Position numbers and translations under genes: made by a program. Shown here in pieces: positions 14,776-26,441 of a stretch of DNA of 64,000 nucleotides. The notes under the pieces are model-generated. The model was given only the letters and a program-made list of their open reading frames with translations, was not told the DNA's origin and did no database searches. The stretch is taken from NCBI GenBank assembly GCA_021817945.1, contig JAKAFL010000001.1:62001-126000 (forward strand), written 5' to 3'. The stretch is from a bacterium. Lineage in GTDB: Bacteria; Verrucomicrobiota; Verrucomicrobiia; Limisphaerales; UBA11358. Within the stretch, counting starts at the first letter, position 1. Each line of letters opens with the position of its first letter.

Positions 14776-15450
14776 TCACCGCCGATTACTGCCTGCAATT
14801 CGATACAGAAGCAAACCAACCGCACCCAAACTAAACAATGAAATTGGGCCAGGCTCCGGGACGGCTATGCTGCCGTTGAAACTCGTCAAATAACTACTGC
14901 CAGTGGATAAAGTGCTTAATGTCTGGCCTGGGCTTGCAAACGAAAAAGACATTGTGAATGAGGCGAGATTATTTGCCTGAAGAAACAGCAAATCTGGGTT
15001 GGCCCCTGAATAGACCACATCCGTAAGGTTCATGGCAAAGACGTCATTGATCGCGCCCCCGGCTTTTCCGTAGGAAGAAATGTCGGTAAAATTAACCAAA
15101 GCAGTCAGCATATTGCCATTGGCATCAGATAGAAAAAAGTTGGCGACTGGCCCGGTCACCGGCGCAGTCTCGACACTGCTATTGGATGTAATGGTTCCGA
15201 AGGTAAAAGGTCCGTTGGAGAACCCGCCCAAAAGACCCACGGATGTGTTATGGCTGGCAGTCCCAGATTCGCTGCCGATTTTAAAATCAGAACTGCTTGA
15301 GGCGTTGGTAAAATAAAATTGAGATGAACCGTTGAAAACTAGCTGCCCTACGCTTGAAAAATTGAGATCCAGAGTGGATTGGGCGTCAGCTTGGTGATGT
15401 GCCAAACCAAACACTGCAAGACTCACGAAAAATGTGAATGTATTTTTCAT
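14776..15450 (-). CDS. PEP-CTERM sorting domain-containing secreted protein (paralogue 1)
   Basis: A 224-residue exported protein with an N-terminal signal peptide (about 1-23, ending ADAQS) and a C-terminal PEP-CTERM signal: VPEPGP near residue 197, a hydrophobic helix, then a basic tail ending GSNRR. PEP-CTERM proteins are exported and processed by an exosortase; none is encoded here. The middle is a beta-rich, Gly/Ser/Asn-rich domain of unknown function with segments GLLGGFSNGPFTFG and TDISSYGKAGGAINDVF, closely matched in the adjacent paralogue. The pair probably arose by tandem duplication and may form surface or matrix material (inference). Confidence 0.85.
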   Translation of the reverse strand: MKNTFTFFVSLAVFGLAHHQADAQSTLDLNFSSVGQLVFNGSSQFYFTNASSSSDFKIGSESGTASHNTSVGLLGGFSNGPFTFGTITSNSSVETAPVTGPVANFFLSDANGNMLTALVNFTDISSYGKAGGAINDVFAMNLTDVVYSGANPDLLFLQANNLASFTMSFSFASPGQTLSTLSTGSSYLTSFNGSIAVPEPGPISLFSLGAVGLLLYRIAGSNRR

Positions 15451-15645
15451 TATGTGCTACACAAGATAGGCTTTGCCTTAGGTTCTGATTTTGTGGGTCT
15501 GCTTTGGAACGCAAACAGCCCCTCCTTGAGGTCAAAACAACAATGCAGCGGCTCTGAACGCAAAAACGTTCGCTAGAACCAGCCAAAAATCCGTGGCAAT
15601 ATTCAAGCCAAGGCAGCTAAAAACCAGCACCAAATACAGCCAAGC

Positions 15646-16323
15646 TTACTTGCGTCTCTGAATCAGGAGTCCAAGAACTCCCAAGGCACCGATCCCAGAC
15701 ATCAGCAGTGAACTGGGTTCAGGAACCGGTGTCACAGCAATGCTTCCGCTGTAGCTGGTAGTATAACCACCCGCACCCGTTGAGAGTTCTGCAAGGGTTT
15801 CACCAGGGCTGCCAAACTGAAACGAGAGGTTTAGAACGGGATTTGCGTTGTTGGCAAGATAAATCAAGTCAGGATTTGATCCTGAATAGGCCAACCCGGA
15901 TAGGTTAACCACGAAGTTGTCATTGATAAAACCGCCAACTTTGCCGTAGGTTGAAACATCTTCGAAATTAACAGAACCGGTCAGATTATGCCCAGCACCG
16001 TCGGCAATGGTAAGAGTTCCTGCCGGGCCTGTCACCGGAGCGCTTTCATACATGCCCACTGTGGTCACTGGTCCATAACTAAAGGGTCCGACCGAAAAAC
16101 CACCCAATAGACCGACGGCGGAACCAGTACTGGATGAACCGCTCTCGCTGGTGATGTCCCATTGGGATCCCATGGGAACGAAAGTTAAAGTATCGGCTGA
16201 ACCACCGAACACCACATTGCCAGTGCTTGAGAAGTTAAGAATAATACCAGATTGAGCCATCGCACCGCTGGCACCAGCCAGCAGAACCCCCAAAGCCACG
16301 CTTGATACAACTTGAGTCTTCAT
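15646..16323 (-). CDS. PEP-CTERM sorting domain-containing secreted protein (paralogue 2)
   Basis: A 225-residue protein built like its neighbour. The signal peptide (about 1-23) ends at AMAQS. The central domain repeats GLLGGFSVGPFSYG and EDVSTYGKVGGFINDNF. The C-terminal sorting signal has VPEPSS near residue 201, then a hydrophobic segment and the basic end QRRK. The two paralogues match collinearly over their whole length. A good ribosome-binding site (GCGGAG) lies 9 bases before the ATG, and a sigma70-like promoter can be placed upstream. The gap of about 195 bp to the downstream paralogue holds no other gene. Confidence 0.87.
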   Translation of the reverse strand: MKTQVVSSVALGVLLAGASGAMAQSGIILNFSSTGNVVFGGSADTLTFVPMGSQWDITSESGSSSTGSAVGLLGGFSVGPFSYGPVTTVGMYESAPVTGPAGTLTIADGAGHNLTGSVNFEDVSTYGKVGGFINDNFVVNLSGLAYSGSNPDLIYLANNANPVLNLSFQFGSPGETLAELSTGAGGYTTSYSGSIAVTPVPEPSSLLMSGIGALGVLGLLIQRRK

Positions 16324-16498: not shown

Positions 16499-17458
16499 TT
16501 ACCGATTTGCATTCCCCTGCCCTTTGTCCTCCTCTAAACCGGAGCCAAAATTTACGCCCAGATAATCGGTAAAAAATTCGAGCACTTCCCGAACCACATT
16601 CGCAGGCGGAATTAATCCATGTCCCTTATTTGGAATAAGTTCCAAATGTGCTGGCACACCACACTCGCCAAGTTTTTTGTAAAAAATGAGACTTTGAAAG
16701 GGTGGAACCAATTTGTCATTCTCACCATGAATCAAAAATATAGGCGCCGTATTGGAACTAACGTAAAATAAAGGGCTTGCGTTATTTGCGGCGATAATAT
16801 GTGTTTGAACAGCGCCGCCTATTAGGCGGGCCACATCGCCGAAAGGGTCTCTTCGTTCCTCGGGATTGGAAACCAATTCATTCAAGTCGGTAGGGGGGTA
16901 TAATGCGCATGCGCATGAGATACTGGAGGAAAATCGGCCATTATCTCCTACCCCACCATCCAAATTTGGATAATGACTCGTCGTGGCCAGAAGAAGTGCC
17001 AAATGACCTCCGGCTGAAGCCCCGAATGCGCCAATACGATTAGGATCCAGGTTATAGGCCCGGGCATTGGCTCGTATCCATTGCACAACGGACTTGCAAT
17101 CATGAAGCTGGGCTGGAAATGGGGCTTCGCTCGTCAGACGATAATCCATGCTGACGATAGCCACTTGGTTTGCAGCCAGAAAGGCGATGGGACAATTTTT
17201 TTTAGACCCTGAATTCCATGCTCCCCCATGTATCCAGATGATCACCGGCAATTTTTTACGAATGAGGGCTGGACGATAAATATCCAACAACAAGGGGTGG
17301 CCAATGCCTAACCCATATTGCAAATCATGAATGGCCGTGACCCCGGGGGGTGGATTGGAGACGCAGCCGACAAATACGATAATGCCGAGGATGCATAAAA
17401 GACATGCCGAGTGGCACCGGTTCACAGCTCCGGCGATCAGGGTCCTGGATGCGGTCAT
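16499..17458 (-). CDS. putative lipoprotein alpha/beta-hydrolase (BD-FAE-like esterase)
   Basis: A 319-residue hydrolase. The N-terminus has a hydrophobic segment followed by a lipobox-like VFVGC near residue 32, suggesting a lipid-anchored envelope protein. The alpha/beta-hydrolase core has the oxyanion motif HGGAW near 75, nucleophile elbow GASAGG near 144, Asp in GENDKLVP near 246, and His in NKGHG near 279, a complete triad. Similar enzymes deacylate acyl or acetyl esters. It is the last gene of the lipid-modification operon, and its ATG overlaps the upstream stop by 4 bp, which suggests a role in acyl-lipid turnover rather than sugar esters (inference). Confidence 0.82.
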   Translation of the reverse strand: MTASRTLIAGAVNRCHSACLLCILGIIVFVGCVSNPPPGVTAIHDLQYGLGIGHPLLLDIYRPALIRKKLPVIIWIHGGAWNSGSKKNCPIAFLAANQVAIVSMDYRLTSEAPFPAQLHDCKSVVQWIRANARAYNLDPNRIGAFGASAGGHLALLLATTSHYPNLDGGVGDNGRFSSSISCACALYPPTDLNELVSNPEERRDPFGDVARLIGGAVQTHIIAANNASPLFYVSSNTAPIFLIHGENDKLVPPFQSLIFYKKLGECGVPAHLELIPNKGHGLIPPANVVREVLEFFTDYLGVNFGSGLEEDKGQGNANR

Positions 17459-18573
17459 TGAATGGGTTTATTTTTAAACAAATAATGAGAAACAAACCAC
17501 TCACTGCCATTTTGAAATCCCCACAGCTCCGCACAAGCCATGTAGAAAACCCGCCAATAAGCCCACCAACGCGTTTCCTGTCCGGGCCCATAAACCTGGC
17601 GAAACAGGGCAAGAATTTCATCGTGGTGAGAATCCATGTTTGCCAGCCATGCCTCCGCCGTCCTCTGGTAGTGCAAGCCGCTCACGCGCCAATGATGTTC
17701 CAATGCCAGATTCTCCTGAAAATAAAGCAACAGCGAATCACTGGGCATGATTCCTCCGGTGAAAAAGTTGCGAGCCATCCAATCGGAGTCATCGTTGCAA
17801 GCAAAGGGATATGCCAGTTCCCGGTGGCAGAAAATGTGAATGAACAATTTTCCCGAAGGCGAAAGCCAGCGAGAAATGTTCTCCATCAGGGATTGATAAT
17901 TTCGCATGTGTTCAAACATTTCCACGGATACGACCCGGTCAAACACGCGGTCTGTTTCAAAATCGTTCATATCCACGGTCATGACCTGAAGGTTTTGCAG
18001 CCCGCGCAATTTGGCCTGGGAATCAATGTGCCGTTTTTGGGATTTGGAGTTGGAAACGGAGAGAATTTGGGAATTAGGAAAACGTTCAGCCATCCAGAGC
18101 GACAGTGAACCCCATCCGCAGCCCAGCTCCAAAATGGATTGGCCGTCAACCAATTCGGCCCGCGTCACAGTGAGGTCCAACATGGCCTCCTCAGCCTGGT
18201 CGAGATTCCCTGCATCATCCTTCCAAAATCCGCAGCTATATTTGAGGTGTTTACCAAGGCAACATTCATAAAACCGTGCTGGTACTTCATAGTGTTGACG
18301 GTTGGCCATGTCCGTTTGGATGGCGATGGGGCTGCGTTTCAAATCCTCAATCAATGCCAATAACCGGGAATGCTGGGCCTCCAGGCCACCCCGTTTTTCC
18401 ACATCCAGTCGGTTTTTCAAAAACCTCCGTATTCCAATCCGAATGATTGCGTCGGGCAACAGGTTCCTGGCAAGAATCCGTTCCCAAAAAGGAATTGGGT
18501 GGTTTTCCTCCTGGTTGGGCCTGGCCGCGACCATTCTGCTTTTTTGCATGCTTGAAGTATTCATGGAATTCAT
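17455..18573 (-). CDS. Cfa-family SAM-dependent methyltransferase (short form)
   Basis: A 372-residue cyclopropane-fatty-acid-synthase-like methyltransferase. The SAM-binding motif ILELGCGWGSLSLW spans residues 147-160. The segment YSCGFW (112-117) corresponds to the conserved Cys of Cfa enzymes, VEMFEH supplies the catalytic Glu, and FIHIFCH a His, so the bicarbonate-binding residues of true Cfa appear present. The start at 18573 overlaps the stop of the DUF1295 gene in an ATGA, fixing the reading despite a longer open frame. The product probably methylates double bonds of membrane acyl chains or a related lipid. It lacks the N-terminal Cfa domain of the long paralogue in this operon. Confidence 0.85.
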   Translation of the reverse strand: MNSMNTSSMQKSRMVAARPNQEENHPIPFWERILARNLLPDAIIRIGIRRFLKNRLDVEKRGGLEAQHSRLLALIEDLKRSPIAIQTDMANRQHYEVPARFYECCLGKHLKYSCGFWKDDAGNLDQAEEAMLDLTVTRAELVDGQSILELGCGWGSLSLWMAERFPNSQILSVSNSKSQKRHIDSQAKLRGLQNLQVMTVDMNDFETDRVFDRVVSVEMFEHMRNYQSLMENISRWLSPSGKLFIHIFCHRELAYPFACNDDSDWMARNFFTGGIMPSDSLLLYFQENLALEHHWRVSGLHYQRTAEAWLANMDSHHDEILALFRQVYGPGQETRWWAYWRVFYMACAELWGFQNGSEWFVSHYLFKNKPIQ

Positions 18574-19376
18574 TTTGCTTTGGCGCGAAATTTTCGGGGC
18601 CAGGGGATGAATGCGTTCGTGGATTCCTGGTATTCCCGGTAGGCATTGCCCTTGGATTTCAATAAAAGTTCTTCTGTGGGCGGAATGCCGGTGACTTGCA
18701 AAAGGAAATACAACATGAACGCCGGGCTCATGAAGGCAATCCATCCCCATGGCGACCCCAAATCCATCACAAAGAATCCCACCCAGGCCATCCATTCAAA
18801 AAAATAGTTTGGATGCCGGGAATAGCGCCAAAGACCGGTCTGGCAAACTTTTCCATGGTTGACGGGGTTCAACCGAAATTTTGACAACTGAAAATCGGCC
18901 AAAGATTCACCCGCTATTGCCATCAGCCCCATTACCAAGCCGAGCCACTCAAGGTCATGGGTGGATTTTGAATCATTCATGCAGGGAATCAGAAAAACGA
19001 CGCTCAACAAAGCCAGCAAAACTGCCTGCAGTTGGAAGAATAAAAAAGTTTTCCAATGAAGATGCAGGGCCCATTTCGATCGCAAAACGGCGTAGCGGGC
19101 GTCTTCACGAGGATGTTGGCGCATCACCCTTGACCCCACGTGCCAGGCCAGCCTGCCACCCCAAATAATGGCCAGGGTGGCAACCTTGATTTTTCTCGCC
19201 TCCAGGCCTGGAGCCGCGATTGAGTAAAAAAGAGCGGCTGGAATGAAGCCAAAGGACCATGACACATCCACCAGGCCAAGATTGCGGACATGCCATGCAA
19301 CACCCCATGTGACCCACATGAGCACAACAGAAAACGCCAGCACTGCGGCCAGCAAAAAAAGCGCCTCATGAATCAT
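18570..19376 (-). CDS. DUF1295 (steroid 5-alpha-reductase-like) membrane protein
   Basis: A 268-residue polytopic protein of the DUF1295 family, related to steroid 5-alpha-reductases and isoprenylcysteine methyltransferases. About six to seven helices are visible. The family-typical C-terminal motif includes GLWRYSRHPNYFFEW (about 190-204), and GNAYREYQESTNAFIPWPRKF lies near the end. These enzymes reduce or modify double bonds of membrane lipids, but the substrate here is not known. The gene overlaps DUF2062 upstream by 11 bp and the short Cfa gene downstream by 4 bp. Confidence 0.87.
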   Translation of the reverse strand: MIHEALFLLAAVLAFSVVLMWVTWGVAWHVRNLGLVDVSWSFGFIPAALFYSIAAPGLEARKIKVATLAIIWGGRLAWHVGSRVMRQHPREDARYAVLRSKWALHLHWKTFLFFQLQAVLLALLSVVFLIPCMNDSKSTHDLEWLGLVMGLMAIAGESLADFQLSKFRLNPVNHGKVCQTGLWRYSRHPNYFFEWMAWVGFFVMDLGSPWGWIAFMSPAFMLYFLLQVTGIPPTEELLLKSKGNAYREYQESTNAFIPWPRKFRAKAK

Positions 19377-19881
19377 GTTTGGTGACAGTGAAGGTTTGCA
19401 ATCCCCAGTTCATTTTAAAAATCACCCTCAAAACCAGGTAAACTGCTGGCAATAAAAAAAGCGTAATGATCATCCAGCCCAGGACGCCGTGCCATGCAAT
19501 GAATCCAGATTGCTTGAAAAATTCCCAAGGGGATTTTTTCCACTGTTGAATCATCAAAGAGAAGGATACGGAGGCATGTGGATTCCGGGAAATCCATTCC
19601 CCCCAGTGAATATACAACAAAATCATGGCTGGCTGTAGAGGTGCGACAATCCAGTTTGCCAGTTGCAAGGCGGGATGGTTTAGCTTCCAAATCAGGCCGC
19701 ACAACGCACACAGGCATGTAGTCGTACCCAGGATAGGAAACAAACCCAGGTTCAAACCCAGAGCCAGACTCCAGGCCAGTTTGGAAGGGGTAATACCTTG
19801 GACCAACTGGCCTTTGATCACCTCTTTAATCCGGGCTACGGGGCGCACGCTGGTTTTAAATTTCAAAGCCTGGAGTTTCAC
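19366..19881 (-). CDS. DUF2062 family membrane protein
   Basis: A 171-residue membrane protein with a basic N-terminus and the DUF2062 core: the segment GITPSKLAWSLALGLNLGLFPILGTTT near residues 30-55, a helix around 60-75, NWIVAPLQPAMILLYIHWGEW near 82-102, and a C-terminal helix pair. DUF2062 proteins have no assigned reaction and often occur with lipid or envelope glycosyltransfer genes. Here the gene is translationally coupled to both neighbours, overlapping Cfa by 4 bp and DUF1295 by 11 bp, which places it firmly in the lipid-modification unit. Confidence 0.85.
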   Translation of the reverse strand: MKLQALKFKTSVRPVARIKEVIKGQLVQGITPSKLAWSLALGLNLGLFPILGTTTCLCALCGLIWKLNHPALQLANWIVAPLQPAMILLYIHWGEWISRNPHASVSFSLMIQQWKKSPWEFFKQSGFIAWHGVLGWMIITLFLLPAVYLVLRVIFKMNWGLQTFTVTKHDS

Positions 19882-21245
19882 AGGGAGATGGGAATGGCAT
19901 TTTCACACATGCCCTCTTCCACCAGATGAGAACCATGGATGGGAAGTGTTTCAGGAGGGGGGTGCAGCCAGCCCAGCGACGGATTGTTTGGACGCGTGCA
20001 CACAGCCTGTGCCACCGTGATATTGCGGGTGTCAAACGCAGCCTCACAATAGCACAAATAGTAATTCCATTTGCGAATGAAAGAGTCATCAAACCCGAGT
20101 TTTTTGATCTCCTTAAGGTTTTGAGCGAACCGGATTCTCCATCGCCGCAATGTTTCACCATAGGACAATCCCATGTCCTCGAGTTCGTGCAGGCACAAAT
20201 CCCCGGTCCTAAACAGGGCCTCGTTGACCCGTTGGATGGAAACCAGCAAGGAACCTGGAAAAATATGCGTTTGAATCCAATCCACGTGCTTGCGCAAATG
20301 AGCGTGGCGTGAATCCGGGCAGACAATCATTTGCATGGCCAGCAGGCCGTGCGGTTTGAGCAATTCATGGCATTTCTTAAAAAATGTTTCCAGGTAGGCA
20401 TCGCCCACCGCTTCAATCATTTCTATGGAAACAATTTTATCAAACTGCCCTGAAAGCTTTCGGTAATCCATTTGCACAACCTCCACGAGTCCATCCAGAC
20501 CAGCCAGGCGCACGCGTTCCCGGGCAAATCGAAACTGTTCACCCGACAAGGTTATGGTTTTGACCCGGCAACCGTGCCTTTTTGCGCAATGAATGGCAAA
20601 ACCTCCCCATCCACCGCCTATTTCAAGCACGCAGTCCGAGGCTTGCAGTTTCAGCTTGTTGCAAATGCGGTTGTACTTTGCGGTTTGAGCCTCTTCCAGT
20701 GTCTGTCCTGGGTCCTGAAACAGGGCGGAAGAATAAGTCATGGTCTGGTCCAGAAACAGTTCGTAAAAAGCGTTGCCCAGATCGTAATGGTCCGCAATAT
20801 TTTCAGGGCTGCCCCGAAGGCTATTCGGGCGGAGCCTGTGCTGGATTCTGTTCTTCCAGCTCAAAATATTGATCCAGCCATTGCGGATTCGGGATCCCGA
20901 CATTCCCGGCCCCTGCTCCACATTCAGGATAAACCAGGCAATGACACGGGTCACATCATCTGTTTCCCATTCGGCTGCCACATAGGATTCCCCAAACCCC
21001 ACATCGCCATATAAAACACATCGCTTGAAAAAATTCCAATCCATCACACGGATCAACGCTGTCACCTGTGCCCCGGGTTGTCCAAATTGCCGCCTTTCCC
21101 CATTAGGCAGTATTAGAATCAACCCTCCTCGTTTCATGGTTGCGAGTAGATTCAATATGCCATTCACCCATATCCTATTCAGCCCCCTTTTTTCTTTCTG
21201 TGGGTTGCCAGGTGTTGTTTCACTTTTCATTTTTTTCATGAACAT
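19878..21245 (-). CDS. Cfa-family cyclopropane-fatty-acyl-phospholipid synthase-like methyltransferase (long form)
   Basis: A 455-residue SAM methyltransferase with full Cfa architecture. The N-terminal lipid-binding domain carries GFGESYVAAEWETDD (83-97); the catalytic domain has DHYDLGNAFYELFLD (152-166) and SAM motif LEIGGGWGGFA (207-217). Glu in VSIEMIEAVG (272-281) matches the catalytic glutamate. Two positions differ from E. coli Cfa: the YSCAYW cysteine is serine here (YSSALF, 171-176), and the histidine after LL is not seen (LLAMQMI). That may mean a plain methylase rather than a cyclopropanating enzyme (inference). It starts 1 bp after the DUF1365 stop. Confidence 0.88.
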   Translation of the reverse strand: MFMKKMKSETTPGNPQKEKRGLNRIWVNGILNLLATMKRGGLILILPNGERRQFGQPGAQVTALIRVMDWNFFKRCVLYGDVGFGESYVAAEWETDDVTRVIAWFILNVEQGPGMSGSRIRNGWINILSWKNRIQHRLRPNSLRGSPENIADHYDLGNAFYELFLDQTMTYSSALFQDPGQTLEEAQTAKYNRICNKLKLQASDCVLEIGGGWGGFAIHCAKRHGCRVKTITLSGEQFRFARERVRLAGLDGLVEVVQMDYRKLSGQFDKIVSIEMIEAVGDAYLETFFKKCHELLKPHGLLAMQMIVCPDSRHAHLRKHVDWIQTHIFPGSLLVSIQRVNEALFRTGDLCLHELEDMGLSYGETLRRWRIRFAQNLKEIKKLGFDDSFIRKWNYYLCYCEAAFDTRNITVAQAVCTRPNNPSLGWLHPPPETLPIHGSHLVEEGMCENAIPISL

Positions 21246-21246
21246 T

Positions 21247-22050
21247 TTATCGGGAATGCTTGTTGACCATGCTGGAATATGGGCGCAACACCTGGCGCTG
21301 CCATTCAGGATTATCCGCCTTCCTGTGATAGGGCACCCCTTTGATCCATAGCCGAAGCGCCTGGTAATGAATCCAGATTATCACCCGCATAGGCATGAAA
21401 GGATTGCGAATCGTTTGCGCAATCAAAGAGGCGTCATTGAGGGGCTTTTTGACGCCGGCTAAACGGCTCCTCAGCACGGTATGCCCCTGCTCCACTTCAT
21501 CAATTTCCACCAACAGGCTATCTCCAGGCAGCCCCATGTTGAAATCCAGGTTCATTTTGAGATCAGAAAAGGGTGAGATATAAAAGAATTTGGCGATCTG
21601 GCAGCGATACACTCCATCCTGTTTCAGGGTTTCAGGCCCAAGCAAATACAGTTTAATTTCTCTGAAGGTATTGCACACCTCTGCCACAACCCCCTTAGGC
21701 TGGCCGCTCTTGTCAAAAAGGTAAAAAATAGATATGGGATTGAATACATATCCGCACATGCGGGGCAGAGTCAACAATCCCACCCGGCAAGATTCATCAA
21801 TATCCATGCCGATGCTCCTGAGGTGGGAAACCAAGCGGCTTTTCAGGTCCCCTCCCCTGCCCGGTTCGTGGTCCGAATCCTTGAAATTATACGGTCGCAA
21901 ACAATTCCGACCAAAAAGGCGAAGCTTTTTGGTGAGGTCGTCCAATTCATCCAAGTCCAGATAAAACATGAGCAGGCGATGTCTGAATTGATGGTCCTTC
22001 GGCTTCAGCCTGTGATGCCAAACGGTGCATTCGTAAATGCTGGAATTCAT
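21247..22050 (-). CDS. DUF1365 family protein
   Basis: A 267-residue soluble protein of the DUF1365 family. The typical N-terminus YECTVWHHRLKPKDHQFRH (about 6-24) is present, as are LLTLPRMCGYVFNPISIFYLFD (about 97-118), VAEVCNTFREIKLYLL and KFFYISPFSDLKMNL. The family has no fixed biochemical role, but its genes are nearly always found with a FAD amine-oxidase-like protein and a Cfa methyltransferase, as here. It overlaps the FAD oxidoreductase gene by 4 bp and abuts the long Cfa gene. Confidence 0.9.
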   Translation of the reverse strand: MNSSIYECTVWHHRLKPKDHQFRHRLLMFYLDLDELDDLTKKLRLFGRNCLRPYNFKDSDHEPGRGGDLKSRLVSHLRSIGMDIDESCRVGLLTLPRMCGYVFNPISIFYLFDKSGQPKGVVAEVCNTFREIKLYLLGPETLKQDGVYRCQIAKFFYISPFSDLKMNLDFNMGLPGDSLLVEIDEVEQGHTVLRSRLAGVKKPLNDASLIAQTIRNPFMPMRVIIWIHYQALRLWIKGVPYHRKADNPEWQRQVLRPYSSMVNKHSR

Positions 22051-23315
22051 TTGAGGAGCATTTCACCAGTCAGCATGCGGCATAAATTCAGCGCAGAGAC
22101 CAAGGCATCCTCGTGAAAGCCATGCCCGAAATAACTGCCGCAAAAAAAGACTGCTTTTGAGCGTTGGTTGAGTTTGGCCAGGCTTCCCTGCGCTTTGATG
22201 GCAGCTAGGTTGAACAGGGGATGATGGTAAATGAACCGGCGAAGCACGCGCGAGGGTTCCACTTGGGATTCACCGTTGATGGAAATAAAATATTGGTTTG
22301 GCCCGGGAATTGCCTGAAGCTGGTTGAGCCAGTAAATGGTGGAGGAAGCTGTATCGTGCCCTTGTTTCGACGGGACGCGGTAATTCCAGGACGCCCAACA
22401 ACGTTTGGAAGAGGGCATAACACTTTCATCTGTGTGTAAAAGCGCCACATTGGGTTGGTAGGAGAATTGTCCAAGGAGGCTTGATTCCTCCCGGTCTGGA
22501 TTTGCCAGCAAGGCAAGGGCCTCATCGGCATGGCAGGCAAAAATCACCTCTTCAAAAACATCAGTCTTTCCAGAGGCGTCCACCACCACAACCCCTTCGG
22601 ATGACTTTTGAACCAGCCGGGCTCCACAATGGAGTTGGATGGCCCCTTTAAAGGGGGCAATGAGCTTCTCAACGTAGGCCTTGGCCCCACCTTGGACCGT
22701 GAACCAGGGATGTTGCGTGTGCAATCCTAAAAATCCGTGATTATGAAAAAAACGAAGCAGGGTTATGGCGGGAAACTCAAGCATTCGGGATGGAGGAGTT
22801 GACCAAACAGCCGCGCTCATGGGAATGAGGTACATCTCGAGGAAATCACGTCCATACCCCCGGTATTCCACATAGGTTTGGAGAGTCATGGACTGGACTT
22901 TGAAATCCTCCAAAGCAGCGACTGCCTCTGAATTAAACCGGTTTATTTGGAGGAGCATTCGCCAAAATCGGGGTTTAAAAATATTTTTCCTCTGGGCAAA
23001 CAAATGGTTGATGCTGGACCCGCAAAATTCCACGTTGGATGGGCCGTGATGGACGCTGAAGGACATGGGGGCGGGTCTGCAGGGCACATTTAGCTGGTTA
23101 AAAAGCCGGGTCAAGGTTGGATAAGTCACATGGTTGAAGACCATGAAACCGGTGTCAACGGGTAGATCTCGGCCATTTTGGGTGATCATCACGGTGTGGG
23201 CATGACCGCCGGCATGACTGTTTGGCTCGTAAAGCGTCAGGTCGCGCGTCTTGTGGAGGAAATGGGCGCAACCCAATCCGGCCACGCCGGTCCCAATGAT
23301 GGCTGTCCGTTTCAC
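22047..23315 (-). CDS. FAD-dependent amine-oxidase-like oxidoreductase
   Basis: A 422-residue flavoprotein. The dinucleotide-binding motif GTGVAGLGCAHFL lies at residues 7-19. A conserved Glu (YEPNSHAGGHAHT) follows near 29-41, and a C-terminal FAD motif, AVFFCGSYFGHGFHEDAL, near 390-407. The family oxidises or isomerises lipid substrates; the version linked to DUF1365 and Cfa genes is thought to act on membrane fatty acids. It overlaps the desaturase upstream and DUF1365 downstream by 4 bp each. Soluble, with possible membrane association. Confidence 0.88.
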   Translation of the reverse strand: MKRTAIIGTGVAGLGCAHFLHKTRDLTLYEPNSHAGGHAHTVMITQNGRDLPVDTGFMVFNHVTYPTLTRLFNQLNVPCRPAPMSFSVHHGPSNVEFCGSSINHLFAQRKNIFKPRFWRMLLQINRFNSEAVAALEDFKVQSMTLQTYVEYRGYGRDFLEMYLIPMSAAVWSTPPSRMLEFPAITLLRFFHNHGFLGLHTQHPWFTVQGGAKAYVEKLIAPFKGAIQLHCGARLVQKSSEGVVVVDASGKTDVFEEVIFACHADEALALLANPDREESSLLGQFSYQPNVALLHTDESVMPSSKRCWASWNYRVPSKQGHDTASSTIYWLNQLQAIPGPNQYFISINGESQVEPSRVLRRFIYHHPLFNLAAIKAQGSLAKLNQRSKAVFFCGSYFGHGFHEDALVSALNLCRMLTGEMLLK

Positions 23316-24316
23316 AAAGTGTTAGAATGGCCGGATTGAATGGTCCTGAGAGGCGGAATTCCACGGGTATTTTCATAAGCGGATTGGGGAACGGGTTGCA
23401 GGTTCCAGATCAAACCTGTCCAAGACAGGATTTTGAGCAGGTAATACGAGATGTCTATTTCCCACCAGTAAAACCCCTGGCGGGTAGCATTCATGTGATG
23501 GTGGTGATTGTTATGCCATCCCTCGCCAAGTGTGATGATGGCTAGTATGAAACTGTTCCGGCTGTTGTCGCTGGTATCATATCGTTTCCTGCCCAGCAAA
23601 TGGGCGAGAGAATTGATGGAGGAAGTGGCATGAAATAGAACCGTGGTGCTGATGAAGAATCCCCAGACCAGGAGTTGCCAGCCTGTCACACCCCATGCCG
23701 GTTTGTAAAGATGCAGCCAATGACCAAGGCCCGTCAACCCCAACGCCAAAAGGAGAGGAACCACCGCATCAAACCGGTTTAATAAAACCAGTTCGGGATA
23801 GCGGGCCAGGTCCCGCACCTTGGAATAATCCGTTGGAAAATTTCGAGCGCTGGTAATCCACCCTATGTGCGACCACCAAAACCCCCTCAGTGTTGGCGAA
23901 TGAACATCCTCAACCTCGTCAGAATGCCGATGGTGATGCCGATGCTGGTAACTCCACCATAAAGGCCCCCGTTGAACGGCGCTGGCCCCAGCCATGGCAA
24001 AAATGAATTGAGCCATCCTGGAGGTGCGAAAAGTCCTGTGCGAAAAATAGCGATGATAAAATCCCGTGATGGCAAACATGCGGCCAAGGTATAAAACAAC
24101 GGCAACACCCACTGAAAACAGGCTGGCACCGGTCCAGATGACTCCAAGGCACCCCACATGCAGAATCACAAAAGGCAATATCCTAATCCACTCCACCTGG
24201 TCCGGCTTTTTGCGGAGGGCTTCAAAATCATCGCGCCCATGATCTGCATCCACCCATTGCACGAGGGAAACAACGGTGCGCCTGCACACATTCAGGATTT
24301 GACCGTTCATATTCAT
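23312..24316 (-). CDS. acyl-CoA/fatty acid desaturase (delta-9 type)
   Basis: A 334-residue membrane-bound di-iron desaturase and the first gene of the minus-strand operon. The three histidine boxes are HRYFSH (88-93), HRHHHRH (125-131) and HNNHHHH (268-274), and an extra HATSSINSLAH is at 229-239. Two hydrophobic hairpins flank them, as in stearoyl-CoA desaturases. It would introduce the double bond that the downstream Cfa-type methyltransferases then modify. The start ATG at 24316 lies 40 bp from the intergenic inverted repeat. Its stop overlaps the next start. Confidence 0.9.
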   Translation of the reverse strand: MNMNGQILNVCRRTVVSLVQWVDADHGRDDFEALRKKPDQVEWIRILPFVILHVGCLGVIWTGASLFSVGVAVVLYLGRMFAITGFYHRYFSHRTFRTSRMAQFIFAMAGASAVQRGPLWWSYQHRHHHRHSDEVEDVHSPTLRGFWWSHIGWITSARNFPTDYSKVRDLARYPELVLLNRFDAVVPLLLALGLTGLGHWLHLYKPAWGVTGWQLLVWGFFISTTVLFHATSSINSLAHLLGRKRYDTSDNSRNSFILAIITLGEGWHNNHHHHMNATRQGFYWWEIDISYYLLKILSWTGLIWNLQPVPQSAYENTRGIPPLRTIQSGHSNTL

Positions 24317-24355
24317 TTTTCAAACATTTTCAATAGAATATCGAACGTGGCAACC

Positions 24356-24388
24356 TTTTGGATGCATGTAAAATGGTTGCATCCAAAA
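24356..24388. promoter_or_regulatory. 11-bp perfect inverted repeat, candidate operator
   Basis: Arms TTTTGGATGCA (24356-24366) and TGCATCCAAAA (24378-24388) are perfect reverse complements around an 11-bp spacer. The half-site centres are 22 bp apart, about two helical turns, which suits a dimeric regulator. It lies 40-72 bp upstream of the desaturase ATG and about 140 bp upstream of the sigma-factor ATG, in the shared divergent region. Neither side is followed by a T-run, so a terminator is unlikely. Confidence 0.55.
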
Positions 24389-24529
24389 CCGGTCCTCATG
24401 CGTAATTTATAAGACTCCTTCTTGTAAGGCGGTCTCAAAATTGATATGAATCTGTGCGTTCAAATCCATTGGGAAGGATTTTTCGGCGCGTTTTTGCACC
24501 CGGAAAGATCCACACCCTGGAAACAAACC

Positions 24530-25108
24530 ATGGATACGATGAATGAATCCGGCGCTGAAGATCGGGATGCCTTGCTGCTGCAAAAGGCGGCGGATGGGGA
24601 TGCCGATGCCTTCGCCGCATTTTACGATCGCCATTCCGTCCTGATGTACTCCGTGGCCATGCGGATTTTAGGAGACCCTTCCGAGGCCAAGGATGTCTTG
24701 CAGGAATCCTGCATTCAAATTTGGGAAAAGGCCTCCAAGTTTGATCCCAAGCTGGGTAAAGCATCAAGTTGGGCCGCCATACTTGTTCGCAATCGGGCTG
24801 TGGACCGGATAAGGTCCTTGCAGCGTCGCCAGCGCCTCTCTGAAGAAGCGGCTATGGAATCATCGCTCGAACCGGCTCCGGGCAAATCGGCAAATGATTT
24901 TCTATACAAGCAGGAAAAGGCCGCATTAATAGGATCCGCCATTATGGAATTGCCCCAGGAGCAGCGGCAGGCCATAGACTTGGCCTATTTCAAAGGTCTA
25001 ACCCATCATCAAATCGCCGAAAAGCTTCAAGAACCCCTTGGGACCATCAAGGCGCGCATACGGCGGGGGTTGCTGCGGATGCGGGATAAACTGGAGGGCT
25101 TGCCATGA
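24530..25108 (+). CDS. ECF-type RNA polymerase sigma factor
   Basis: A 192-residue sigma70-family protein with only regions 2 and 4. Region 2 (about 22-90) includes DVLQESCIQIWEKA. Region 4 (about 130-185) has LPQEQRQAIDLAYFKGLT followed by a helix-turn-helix HHQIAEKLQEPLGTIKARIRRG. It should redirect polymerase to stress genes, probably its own unit and the divergent lipid operon. The ATG at 24530 is preceded by GGAAA at a suitable distance; an in-frame upstream ATG at 24446 would add a non-homologous leader. The stop overlaps the anti-sigma ATG by 4 bp. Confidence 0.92.
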   Translation: MDTMNESGAEDRDALLLQKAADGDADAFAAFYDRHSVLMYSVAMRILGDPSEAKDVLQESCIQIWEKASKFDPKLGKASSWAAILVRNRAVDRIRSLQRRQRLSEEAAMESSLEPAPGKSANDFLYKQEKAALIGSAIMELPQEQRQAIDLAYFKGLTHHQIAEKLQEPLGTIKARIRRGLLRMRDKLEGLP

Positions 25109-25914
25109 TAGACGAACAACTTCAGGAACAGGCTTCCCTTCATGTGTTGGGCGCTCTTTCACCGGAGGAGGCGCGCGAATTCAAACAAAAAATGACCTGC
25201 AACCCCGAGTTGAGAGCGTTTGTGGGCAGCCTGTCTGTGGCCACCTCGGCGATTGCCGGAAATGTGCCCTGCGCCAAACCTCCTCCAGAAGTCCGAACCC
25301 AATTGCTTGCACAAATTGCGCGTTCCCAAAAGGTTCCCAAGCCTGCTGGGCGCGACTCAAAGCCTGCCTTTCCCCTGTTTGAATGGATTCTGCCAACCTT
25401 GTCTGTGGGATTGGCGGTGATTTGCCTGATGCTCAGCTACCAAAATAATCACCTTAAACAAACTGTTCTTGCCGCCTCCAACCAAATACGCAGCCTGAAT
25501 GCCATGGCAGCCGCACTCCAATCTGCCACCAATGGCCTTCAACAAACCGTATTCGCCTTGAGTGAATCCAACCGTCTGGCAAACCTTCAAATAACATTGC
25601 TCCAATCCCATATCAATGGTTCGCCCGATGCCATGGCTGCCACCCTTTGGGATCAATCCGACCAAAAAGGGGTTTTTGTGGTTCGCAATCTCCCGCCAGC
25701 CCCATCCAGCCGGGATTATCAGTTATGGGTTCTTGAAAATGGCACCACTCCCGTGGATGCCGGGGTGGTTCATGTGGATGAGAATGGCTCGGGGAGAGTG
25801 GATTTTCAACCGGTCAAACACATTCAAATTGCCGCCAAGTTTGCGGTCACCGAGGAGGTTCATGGCGGATCCCCCACCCCCACCCTCAAAAACCTTGTCC
25901 TGGCAGGCATTTGA
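25105..25914 (+). CDS. RskA-like anti-sigma factor
   Basis: A 269-residue single-pass membrane protein. The N-terminal cytoplasmic region (1-85) with LHVLGALSPEEAREFKQKM resembles the RskA anti-sigma domain. A transmembrane helix lies at about 95-112 (LPTLSVGLAVICLML), then a short helical stretch, and an extracytoplasmic RskA domain (about 172-268) containing DYQLWVLENGTTPVDAGV. It should hold the cognate ECF factor at the membrane until an envelope signal releases it. Translation is coupled to the sigma factor. It is not the zinc/cupin ChrR type seen with similar lipid genes elsewhere. Confidence 0.88.
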   Translation: MIDEQLQEQASLHVLGALSPEEAREFKQKMTCNPELRAFVGSLSVATSAIAGNVPCAKPPPEVRTQLLAQIARSQKVPKPAGRDSKPAFPLFEWILPTLSVGLAVICLMLSYQNNHLKQTVLAASNQIRSLNAMAAALQSATNGLQQTVFALSESNRLANLQITLLQSHINGSPDAMAATLWDQSDQKGVFVVRNLPPAPSSRDYQLWVLENGTTPVDAGVVHVDENGSGRVDFQPVKHIQIAAKFAVTEEVHGGSPTPTLKNLVLAGI

Positions 25915-25976
25915 TAAATCAGGGCCAAAAACTCCTGATTGCCTGGCATGTTCATCTGCTTCGATACTTCAAGAAC

Positions 25977-26441
25977 GTGAAAATCAGAAAATTTGAAACA
26001 GAAATCTGGCTCCCATTCCCCCCGGACTATTTGTTTCAATTTTTTGGGGATGCCGGCAACCTGGATTTGCTCACTCCGTCCTGGCTCCATTTCAAGATCA
26101 TCACCCCCATGCCCATAGCCATGCAGGTTGGAACCCTGATTGATTATCGCCTAAGGATTCATGGCTGGCCCGTTTTTTGGCGCACGCGCATTTCCAAATG
26201 GAACCCTCCCCATTATTTCGTGGATGAACAATTGCGTGGCCCATACAGGCTATGGGTTCATGAACACCATTTCATCCCGGAAATGGGAGGAACCCGGGTG
26301 CGCGACAGCGTGCAATATTCAGTGCCTTTTGACTTGATAATACATCCCTTGCTGGTTCGACCGGATCTTGAGCGAATATTTGCCTATCGCTCTGCGGTTC
26401 TCTTGGAGCGCTTCAAATCTTCAACAGAAAAAACCTCATGA
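25977..26441 (+). CDS. SRPBCC (START-like) ligand-binding protein
   Basis: A 154-residue protein with the START/SRPBCC helix-grip pattern: ETEIWLPFPPDYLFQFFGDAGNLDLLTP near the N-terminus, beta strands around GTLIDYRLRIHGWPVFWRTRI, and the C-terminal helix ERIFAYRSAVLLERF. Such folds bind hydrophobic ligands including lipids. The start is uncertain: a TTG at 25911 overlaps the anti-sigma stop, but GTG at 25977 begins exactly at the domain. It is third in the sigma/anti-sigma unit and ends convergent with the lactonase gene. Confidence 0.78.
   Translation: MKIRKFETEIWLPFPPDYLFQFFGDAGNLDLLTPSWLHFKIITPMPIAMQVGTLIDYRLRIHGWPVFWRTRISKWNPPHYFVDEQLRGPYRLWVHEHHFIPEMGGTRVRDSVQYSVPFDLIIHPLLVRPDLERIFAYRSAVLLERFKSSTEKTS

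What the first reader, a model, noticed from the sequence alone, without database searches (positions are those of the whole stretch)
16499..26441. Eleven-gene divergent regulon: ECF sigma/RskA unit facing an eight-gene overlapping lipid-modification operon
Desaturase, FAD oxidoreductase, DUF1365, two Cfa-type methylases, DUF2062, DUF1295 and a lipoprotein esterase run head-to-tail with overlaps or 1-bp gaps, divergent from a sigma factor, an RskA-like anti-sigma and a START-like protein. Similar lipid sets elsewhere are linked to ChrR-type singlet-oxygen control; here the anti-sigma is a different, membrane type. The unit could make a methylated, cyclopropanated or furan fatty acid in response to an envelope signal. 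The product is not known.
Basis: partly seen in the sequence, partly recalled or inferred. Interest (0 to 1): 0.75.

Follow-up and report, generated by a model that had tools for sequence, protein, structure and literature searches.

The report
Sigma-controlled furan fatty acid operon
An environmental Verrucomicrobia bacterium carries what looks like a full gene set for protective furan fatty acids, apparently switched on through two mirror-image promoters by its own sigma factor with a membrane-bound brake; similar units exist in other phyla, so this is a new variant rather than a new kind of system.

Summary
In detail: 11 genes at 16499-26441, the eight lipid genes joined by overlaps or a 1-bp gap, facing an ECF sigma, an RskA-type anti-sigma and a START-like gene. 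New here: two mirror-image promoters (TGCATCC-N16-CG) lie between the arms in 9 of 9 distinct loci with this arrangement, and a close sigma (E<=1e-60) is in 9 of 10 genomes with the operon and 0 of 49 without (3 of those 49 at E<=1e-40). The lipid genes match the published furan fatty acid pathway: FAD protein UfaD-like, DUF1365 UfaO-like, first 'Cfa' UfaM-like; the second 'Cfa' is of the coclaurine-N-methyltransferase/FufM kind, so a dimethyl-furan fatty acid is predicted. Most likely: membrane damage, perhaps photo-oxidative, removes the anti-sigma; free sigma fires both promoters; furan fatty acids are made. Product and signal are untested. New variant of a known kind.

The parts
16499..17458 (-). 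BD-FAE-type esterase, probably a lipoprotein, last gene of the operon
   Evidence: Pfam BD-FAE 5e-60; one hydrophobic N-terminal segment. Homologue (47-55%) at the operon end in L016, L017 and L020
17455..18573 (-).
   Evidence: Best PDB coclaurine NMT 8.8e-81, cyclopropane synthase 8e-27; EMFEHM in 85 of 88 ORFs of this type in 89 loci
18570..19376 (-). DUF1295 membrane protein (distant matches to steroid 5-alpha reductase and ICMT models)
   Evidence: Pfam DUF1295 8e-60; adjacent to the FufM-like gene in 58 of 80 named loci
19366..19881 (-). DUF2062 membrane protein
   Evidence: Pfam 6e-13
19878..21245 (-). UfaM-like fatty acyl methylase (CFA1)
   Evidence: Pfam CMAS 1e-79; SIEMIEAVG where the two solved cyclopropane synthases aligned (7qos, 6bqc) read SVGMFEHVG
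21247..22050 (-). DUF1365, UfaO-like furan-forming protein
   Evidence: Pfam 2e-66; UfaO carries DUF1365
22047..23315 (-). FAD oxidoreductase, UfaD-like
   Evidence: Pfam NAD_binding_8/Amino_oxidase; 40% identity to the FAD protein of a ChrR-linked locus, L121
23312..24316 (-). Fatty acid desaturase, first gene of the operon
   Evidence: Pfam FA_desaturase 9e-19
24342..24366 (-). Predicted ECF promoter for the lipid operon: TGCATCC-N16-CG(ATAT)
   Evidence: site in 9 of 9 distinct loci with divergent sigma
24378..24402 (+). Predicted ECF promoter for sigma/anti-sigma: TGCATCC-N16-CG(TAAT)
   Evidence: site in 9 of 9 distinct loci with divergent sigma
24446..25108 (+). ECF sigma factor, SigK-like; ATG at 24446 has an in-frame counterpart in all 8 distinct relatives examined
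   Evidence: Pfam Sigma70_r2/r4; best PDB SigK 4nqw 1.7e-26; start
25105..25914 (+). RskA-type membrane anti-sigma factor; one hydrophobic segment, residues 91-109
   Evidence: RskA_C 5e-21; NF052375 antisigma 107.2 bits, cut-off 100; segment; no HxxxCxxC
25977..26441 (+). START/SRPBCC-like protein (ORF listed from 25911)
   Evidence: Polyketide_cyc 3e-6, above cut-off; 60% identical homologue beside the sigma in L014 only, of the 9 relative loci searched

Best explanation
A self-contained stress regulon that makes furan fatty acids. The RskA-type anti-sigma holds the SigK-like ECF sigma at the membrane (inferred from family). Membrane damage, most likely photo-oxidative or singlet-oxygen type, leads to proteolysis of the anti-sigma (inferred). 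Free sigma then uses two mirror-image promoters (supported by conservation, not by experiment): one feeds back on sigma/anti-sigma, the other drives the lipid operon. The desaturase supplies an unsaturated acyl chain. The UfaM-like enzyme methylates it, the UfaD-like enzyme makes the methyl-diene, the UfaO-like DUF1365 protein closes the furan with O2, and the FufM-like enzyme adds a second methyl to give a dimethyl-furan fatty acid (all inferred by homology). The furan lipid scavenges oxidants in the membrane. Roles of DUF1295, DUF2062, esterase and START are unassigned.
For: Promoter pair in 9 of 9 distinct loci, spacer 16 each time, while most other intergenic bases differ; single-base shuffles of the window stretch: either site in 6, both in 0 of 20000. 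Own genome: of 10 hits to one pattern the 8 others lie inside ORFs; of 21 hits to another, 18 lie inside ORFs of 80 aa or more, 2 are this pair, 1 is intergenic 310 bp from an ORF. DUF1365 and the FufM-like gene are in the same 10 of 59 genomes; sigma at E<=1e-60 in 9 of those 10 and 0 of the other 49. Motif before the desaturase in L017, where the nearest sigma (54%) lies on another contig. Chemistry of UfaM/UfaD/UfaO/FufM; FufM 38% identical to Arabidopsis AT4G33110. Photolyase beside this sigma in L012 and L014. R. capsulatus SigK/RskA-like pair induced by singlet oxygen; proteolysis of ChrR, and UfaO (RSP_1090) needed for full RpoE activation (abstract).
Against: No lipid or expression data. 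The 1e-60 line was drawn after seeing the scores; at E<=1e-40, 3 of the 49 genomes without the operon (G027, G048, G054) also have a relative, and one operon genome (G041) has none. The 9 loci are kin, so not independent. Photolyase in only 2 of 89 loci; the own-genome photolyase is about 83 kb away and the only motif-like hit in its 10-kb stretch is inside the gene on the other strand. No site with up to 2 mismatches before START in the window. The sigma has none of SigK's cysteines. The same report says R. capsulatus lacks homologues of RSP_1087-1091, so a SigK/RskA-like pair can serve without furan genes. 41 of 44 named full-set loci show no linked sigma. DUF1365 identity to Proteobacterial and Streptomyces versions is 22-38%.
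Confidence: 0.5

Rival explanations
1. Same regulation, but the product is a methyl-branched or methyl-unsaturated acyl chain (10-methyl type) and not a furan; DUF1295 acts as a reductase.
For: DUF1295 has distant matches to steroid 5-alpha reductases; UfaA1 lies in the M. bovis SigK regulon, and tuberculostearate synthesis by UfaA1 is recalled, not from a call; the Streptomyces operon has DUF1295 but no second methylase in the operon as annotated (a class I methyltransferase about 5 kb away was not typed).
Against: The window has both DUF1365 (UfaO family) and a FufM-like enzyme; that simple methyl branching needs no DUF1365 protein is recalled.
Confidence: 0.22
2. Furan fatty acids are made, but the inducing signal is a different envelope stress, not photo-oxidation.
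For: SigK signals and role are called obscure or little known (passages); photolyase linkage in only 2 of 89 loci; own genome has a second such dyad near a ferritin-like protein.
Against: The lipid core sits with ChrR or MerR and often photolyase on Proteobacterial plasmids; R. capsulatus SigK/RskA-like pair is singlet-oxygen induced; M. kansasii genes with putative SigK sites are light-induced; RskA abundance falls under UV in Nesterenkonia.
Confidence: 0.22
3. Plain cyclopropanation operon with extra genes.
For: Both methylases match the CMAS Pfam model.
Against: CFA1 has EMIEAVG in place of GMFEHVG, as in ChrR-linked methylases; CFA2 is far closer to coclaurine NMT.
Confidence: 0.04

Closest known systems
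SigK-RskA with ufa-type operon in Actinobacteria (Streptomyces sp. NBC_00069 plasmid, L154; M. bovis SigK locus with UfaA1)
   Same: L154: SigK-annotated sigma plus RskA_C anti-sigma divergent from FADox-DUF1365-CFA-DUF1295-hydrolase; CCAATCC-N16-CGA once on each strand between them and nowhere else in 13.3 kb (pattern chosen by eye after the [CG]CATCC pattern found nothing)
   Different: Window adds desaturase, DUF2062, FufM-like gene and an unrelated esterase (no BLAST similarity to the L154 hydrolase); sigma lacks the SigK cysteines; -35 is TGCATCC. Of 2 Streptomyces regions opened, the other (L155) shows no such unit
RpoE-ChrR singlet-oxygen regulon with ufaD/ufaO (R. sphaeroides; Phyllobacterium, Ensifer, Aminobacter plasmids)
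   Same: Sigma/ChrR divergent from FADox-DUF1365; TGATCC or CGATCC-N16-CGTA on both strands in 2 of 4 ChrR loci, L120 and L153
   Different: ChrR is a cupin anti-sigma; the window's is RskA-type, and its sigma falls outside the ChrR-partner clade
Acinetobacter sp. WY4 plasmid lipid operon (L149)
   Same: Desaturase-FADox-DUF1365-CFA-DUF1295-FufM-like in that order, cryptochrome/photolyase nearby
   Different: No sigma annotated in the 19-kb stretch; histidine kinase and response regulator genes follow; no DUF2062
UfaM/UfaD/UfaO/FufM pathway (R. sphaeroides, R. palustris; PMC7380195)
   Same: Each of the four enzyme types has a candidate here
   Different: In R. palustris FufM is RPA0924, apart from RPA2569-2571; here all four sit in one operon with a desaturase

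Membership tests
SigK-RskA dyad (ECF18/ECF19) | Anti-sigma with RskA_C domain and a transmembrane segment | tested here: met
   RskA_C 75.7 bits, cut-off 29.4; hydrophobic segment 91-109
SigK-RskA dyad (ECF18/ECF19) | Sigma reaches NCBI's SigK model cut-off | tested here: not met
   157.9 bits, cut-off 226, second-best model; Streptomyces L154 sigma scores 265.9
SigK-RskA dyad (ECF18/ECF19) | Sigma closer to SigK than to ChrR-partner RpoE | tested here: inconclusive
   PDB: SigK 96.6 bits, RpoE 78.7; ChrR-partner sigmas form a supported clade (95/96) without it, but its place next to SigK is unresolved and long branches are flagged
SigK-RskA dyad (ECF18/ECF19) | Redox cysteine pair of SigK | tested here: not met
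   No cysteine at any of the 4 cysteine columns of the SigK fragment aligned; the pair is kept in 94% of ECF18 and 56% of ECF19, so this does not exclude ECF19
ChrR-type (ECF11) singlet-oxygen dyad | Anti-sigma with HxxxCxxC zinc motif and cupin domain | tested here: not met
   No HxxxCxxC and only RskA_C found. Control: L121 ChrR has both; the zinc motif was found in 2 of 3 ChrR proteins (not L120)
Furan fatty acid pathway | UfaO family (DUF1365) | tested here: met
   224.5 bits, cut-off 25
Furan fatty acid pathway | UfaD-type FAD protein and UfaM-type methylase in one operon with it | tested here: inconclusive
   Genes and operon present and 40% identical to ChrR-linked counterparts; the R. 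sphaeroides proteins themselves were not at hand
Furan fatty acid pathway | FufM-family second methylase | tested here: inconclusive
   Coclaurine-NMT kind; FufM is 38% identical to AT4G33110, whose coclaurine-NMT-like label is recalled; FufM sequence not at hand
Furan fatty acid pathway | Furan fatty acid in the lipids | not testable with these tools
   needs mass spectrometry
Cyclopropane fatty acid synthase | SVGMFEHVG stretch seen in two solved synthases | tested here: not met
   SIEMIEAVG in CFA1

The most novel reading that the evidence does not exclude
RskA-type membrane anti-sigmas, SigK's included, are sensors of oxidised membrane lipid, parallel to ChrR but working from within the membrane, and control of furan fatty acid synthesis is an old job of theirs; the window is the fullest form seen here, a one-operon route from desaturation to a dimethyl-furan fatty acid. 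(Odds lowered from a draft 0.25 because R. capsulatus has the pair without the furan genes.)
Probability: 0.22. Interest if true: 0.7.

Novelty: new variant of a known kind. Interest (0 to 1): 0.42.

Why it matters
It brings together SigK-RskA, whose signal is called obscure, and furan fatty acid synthesis under RpoE-ChrR. One paper already notes that the singlet-oxygen sigma pair of R. capsulatus resembles SigK/RskA (PMC7074977, passages); a link from SigK-RskA to furan fatty acids was not seen in searches (20 of 49 papers listed). The same divergent layout faces the same lipid core with ChrR, with SigK-RskA and with this pair, so one idea (photo-oxidised membrane in, furan fatty acid out) becomes testable for all three. 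The window also offers a compact operon with candidates for all four known enzymes plus unassigned partners (DUF1295, DUF2062).

Tried and rejected
Plain cyclopropanation was rejected. Membership in the ChrR/ECF11 type was rejected. A wide regulon in the own genome was looked for and not found with TGCATCC-N15-17-CGNNAT (10 hits, 8 others inside ORFs) or TGCATCC-N16-CGW (21 hits, 18 inside ORFs). Limits: some of those ORFs may not be genes (the C19 hit, beside the second dyad, is one I doubt), and sites without the leading T, as before the ferritin-like gene on C19, escape these patterns. The light link through photolyase is weak in these loci: 2 of 89. My first view that L012 lacks the anti-sigma was wrong: an N-terminal part matches. 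The promoter motif does not tell the sigma types apart; of 4 ChrR loci, 2 show the pair on both strands, L121 on one strand only and L150 with spacer 15. Rfam at gathering scores gave only a tRNA in the window. sigma70 and terminator scans were at chance level. Plasmid regions opened and not used as support: L151 (unannotated), L155 (no such unit). Papers: PMC7380195 section 8 and passages; PMC7509140, PMC9861118, PMC10940516, PMC5547695, PMC10540498, PMC7074977, PMC5241685, PMC8965627 passages; PMC3818230 abstract and outline; other listings only.
Full report
OBSERVATION. The eleven ORFs exist as described with the stated domains. Gaps run -4, -4, +1, -4, -11, -4, -4 from desaturase to esterase. 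The second methylase's start moves to 18573 and START's to GTG 25977. The sigma ATG at 24446 has an in-frame counterpart in all 8 distinct relatives examined, with a similar leader (MSLCAQ or near, in the rows printed), so that start is probably right.

SETTING. The window is part of contig C57 of a 3.76 Mb, 94.7% complete genome. Public records with this unit are labelled Verrucomicrobia subdivision 3 (L020) and Methylacidimicrobium fagopyrum (L025, the contig of L015). The unit is patchy: DUF1365 is in 10 of 59 genomes searched, own included; the FufM-like gene is in the same 10. In G057 the nearest sigma lies on another contig with an RskA_C anti-sigma, yet the desaturase there keeps the motif. 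All 8 relatives with a divergent sigma also have the anti-sigma, cut by the contig end in L016 and only as an N-terminal part in L012.

PROMOTERS. The intergenic region holds TGCATCC-N16-CG on both strands. In 9 of 9 distinct loci with divergent sigma (window, L011, L012, L014, L015, L016, L018, L019, L020) both sites are present, the sigma-side site at -68 to -72 and the operon-side site beginning at -104 to -108 from the sigma ATG, while most surrounding bases differ. The loci are kin, so this is conservation and not nine independent events. Single-base shuffles of the window stretch gave either site in 6 and both in 0 of 20000. Background of GCATCC-N16-CG[AT] is 87 hits in 1.55 Mb of 89 loci, real sites included. 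In the own genome 8 of 10 hits of one pattern and 18 of 21 of another lie inside ORFs; the window's pair and one site 310 bp from an ORF do not. So the regulon looks local, within the limits given under Tried and rejected. In L014 a further site stands before START-SDR-photolyase; the window has none before START with up to 2 mismatches.

ENZYMES. CFA1 has SIEMIEAVG, as in the Salinivibrio and Acinetobacter operon proteins, with SIEMFEAVG in the ChrR-linked Ensifer protein and EMxEAV in 62 of 65 CFA1-type ORFs of 89 loci, against SVGMFEHVG in the two solved cyclopropane synthases aligned (7qos, 6bqc). CFA2's best solved relatives are coclaurine and pavine N-methyltransferases (8.8e-81, 7e-74), with cyclopropane synthase far behind (8e-27). 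Arabidopsis AT4G33110 is 38% identical to FufM (PMC10940516, passages); its coclaurine-NMT-like label is recalled. In R. sphaeroides/R. palustris, UfaM methylates, UfaD desaturates, UfaO (DUF1365) puts in O2-derived oxygen to form the furan, and FufM adds the second methyl (PMC7380195, section 8 and passages). All four have a candidate here; hence a dimethyl-furan product is predicted, not shown.

HOW COMMON. Stretches reach at most 10 kb each side and many are shorter, and a remote sigma would be missed. DUF1295 is next to the FufM-like gene in 58 of 80. The lipid set is thus widespread; the divergent sigma is a trait of the window's kin in this sample.

PRECEDENTS FOR THE CONTROL. ChrR plus sigma faces FADox-DUF1365 on Phyllobacterium, Ensifer and Aminobacter plasmids, and lies near DUF1295-FufM-like in R. 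leguminosarum. Sites of the form TGATCC or CGATCC-N16-CGTA stand on both strands in 2 of 4 such loci, L120 and L153. A Salinivibrio plasmid has MerR-photolyase-NTF2-SDR-FADox-DUF1365-CFA. Streptomyces sp. NBC_00069 has a SigK-annotated sigma plus an RskA_C anti-sigma facing FADox-DUF1365-CFA-DUF1295-hydrolase. There the preset [CG]CATCC pattern found nothing; CCAATCC-N16-CGA, picked by eye afterwards, occurs once on each strand between the arms and nowhere else in 13.3 kb. A second Streptomyces region, L155, has no such unit. The M. bovis SigK regulon includes UfaA1 and three proteins of unknown function beside SigK and RskA (PMC10540498, passages); that these include an FAD protein, DUF1365 and DUF1295 is recalled. 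R. capsulatus has a pair more like SigK/RskA than RpoE/ChrR, induced by singlet oxygen, but lacks homologues of RSP_1087-1091 (PMC7074977, passages).

SIGMA AND ANTI-SIGMA TYPE. Best PDB match SigK (1.7e-26), then RpoE (5e-21). In a 23-row tree the ChrR-partner sigmas and RpoE form a clade (95/96) without the window's; its place relative to SigK is unresolved, and the tool warns of long branches. It misses the SigK model cut-off (157.9 of 226 bits) and has no cysteine at SigK's cysteine columns. The anti-sigma meets RskA_C and NF052375, has one hydrophobic segment and no HxxxCxxC (one of three ChrR proteins lacked it as well). I therefore call the pair SigK-like/RskA-type, not SigK-RskA.

MECHANISM. 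Supported by conservation: the two promoters, the co-occurrence, the operon. Inferred: membrane anti-sigma proteolysis (DegS/RseP-type in R. sphaeroides, PMC3818230, abstract), the signal, the product. For light: photolyase beside the sigma in L012 and L014; light-induced genes with putative SigK sites in M. kansasii (PMC9861118, passages); RskA falling under UV in Nesterenkonia (PMC8965627, passages). Against: photolyase in only 2 of 89 loci, and none under this motif in the own genome as far as looked.

VERDICT. A real, conserved regulon; a new variant of a known kind. Interest 0.42.

Noticed in passing
own genome G000:C19:32439-33014 (L122): Second SigK-like sigma (51% identical) with an RskA_C anti-sigma, and a ferritin-like protein with a GCATCC-N16-CGT site 33 bp upstream; a sigma/RskA_C anti-sigma/ferritin-like set is also on an Aquisphaera plasmid (L152).
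   Followed up: partly
L012:6463-6915: Only an N-terminal part (residues 1-140 of the window's) of the anti-sigma matches; an SDR-DUF2867 gene and a photolyase follow.
   Followed up: partly
L125:342-418: A related sigma/anti-sigma pair lies near a DUF4331 gene that has a GCATCC-N17-CGT site 76 bp before it; L124 also has a pair near a DUF4331 gene.
   Followed up: no
L018:8084-8419 and relatives: A small membrane gene (DUF1475) lies between CFA1 and DUF1295 in several relatives' operons and is not seen in the window or L017.
   Followed up: no
window 24410-24450: Conserved TTGT and TATGA stretches before and over the sigma ATG may be a second, housekeeping-type promoter or part of the leader.
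   Followed up: no
window 14776-16323: Two similar-looking exported proteins in tandem beyond the operon's end, one with a PEP-CTERM match.
   Followed up: no
window 42788 (-): A third exact TGCATCC-N16-CG match in the window; context not examined.
   Followed up: no
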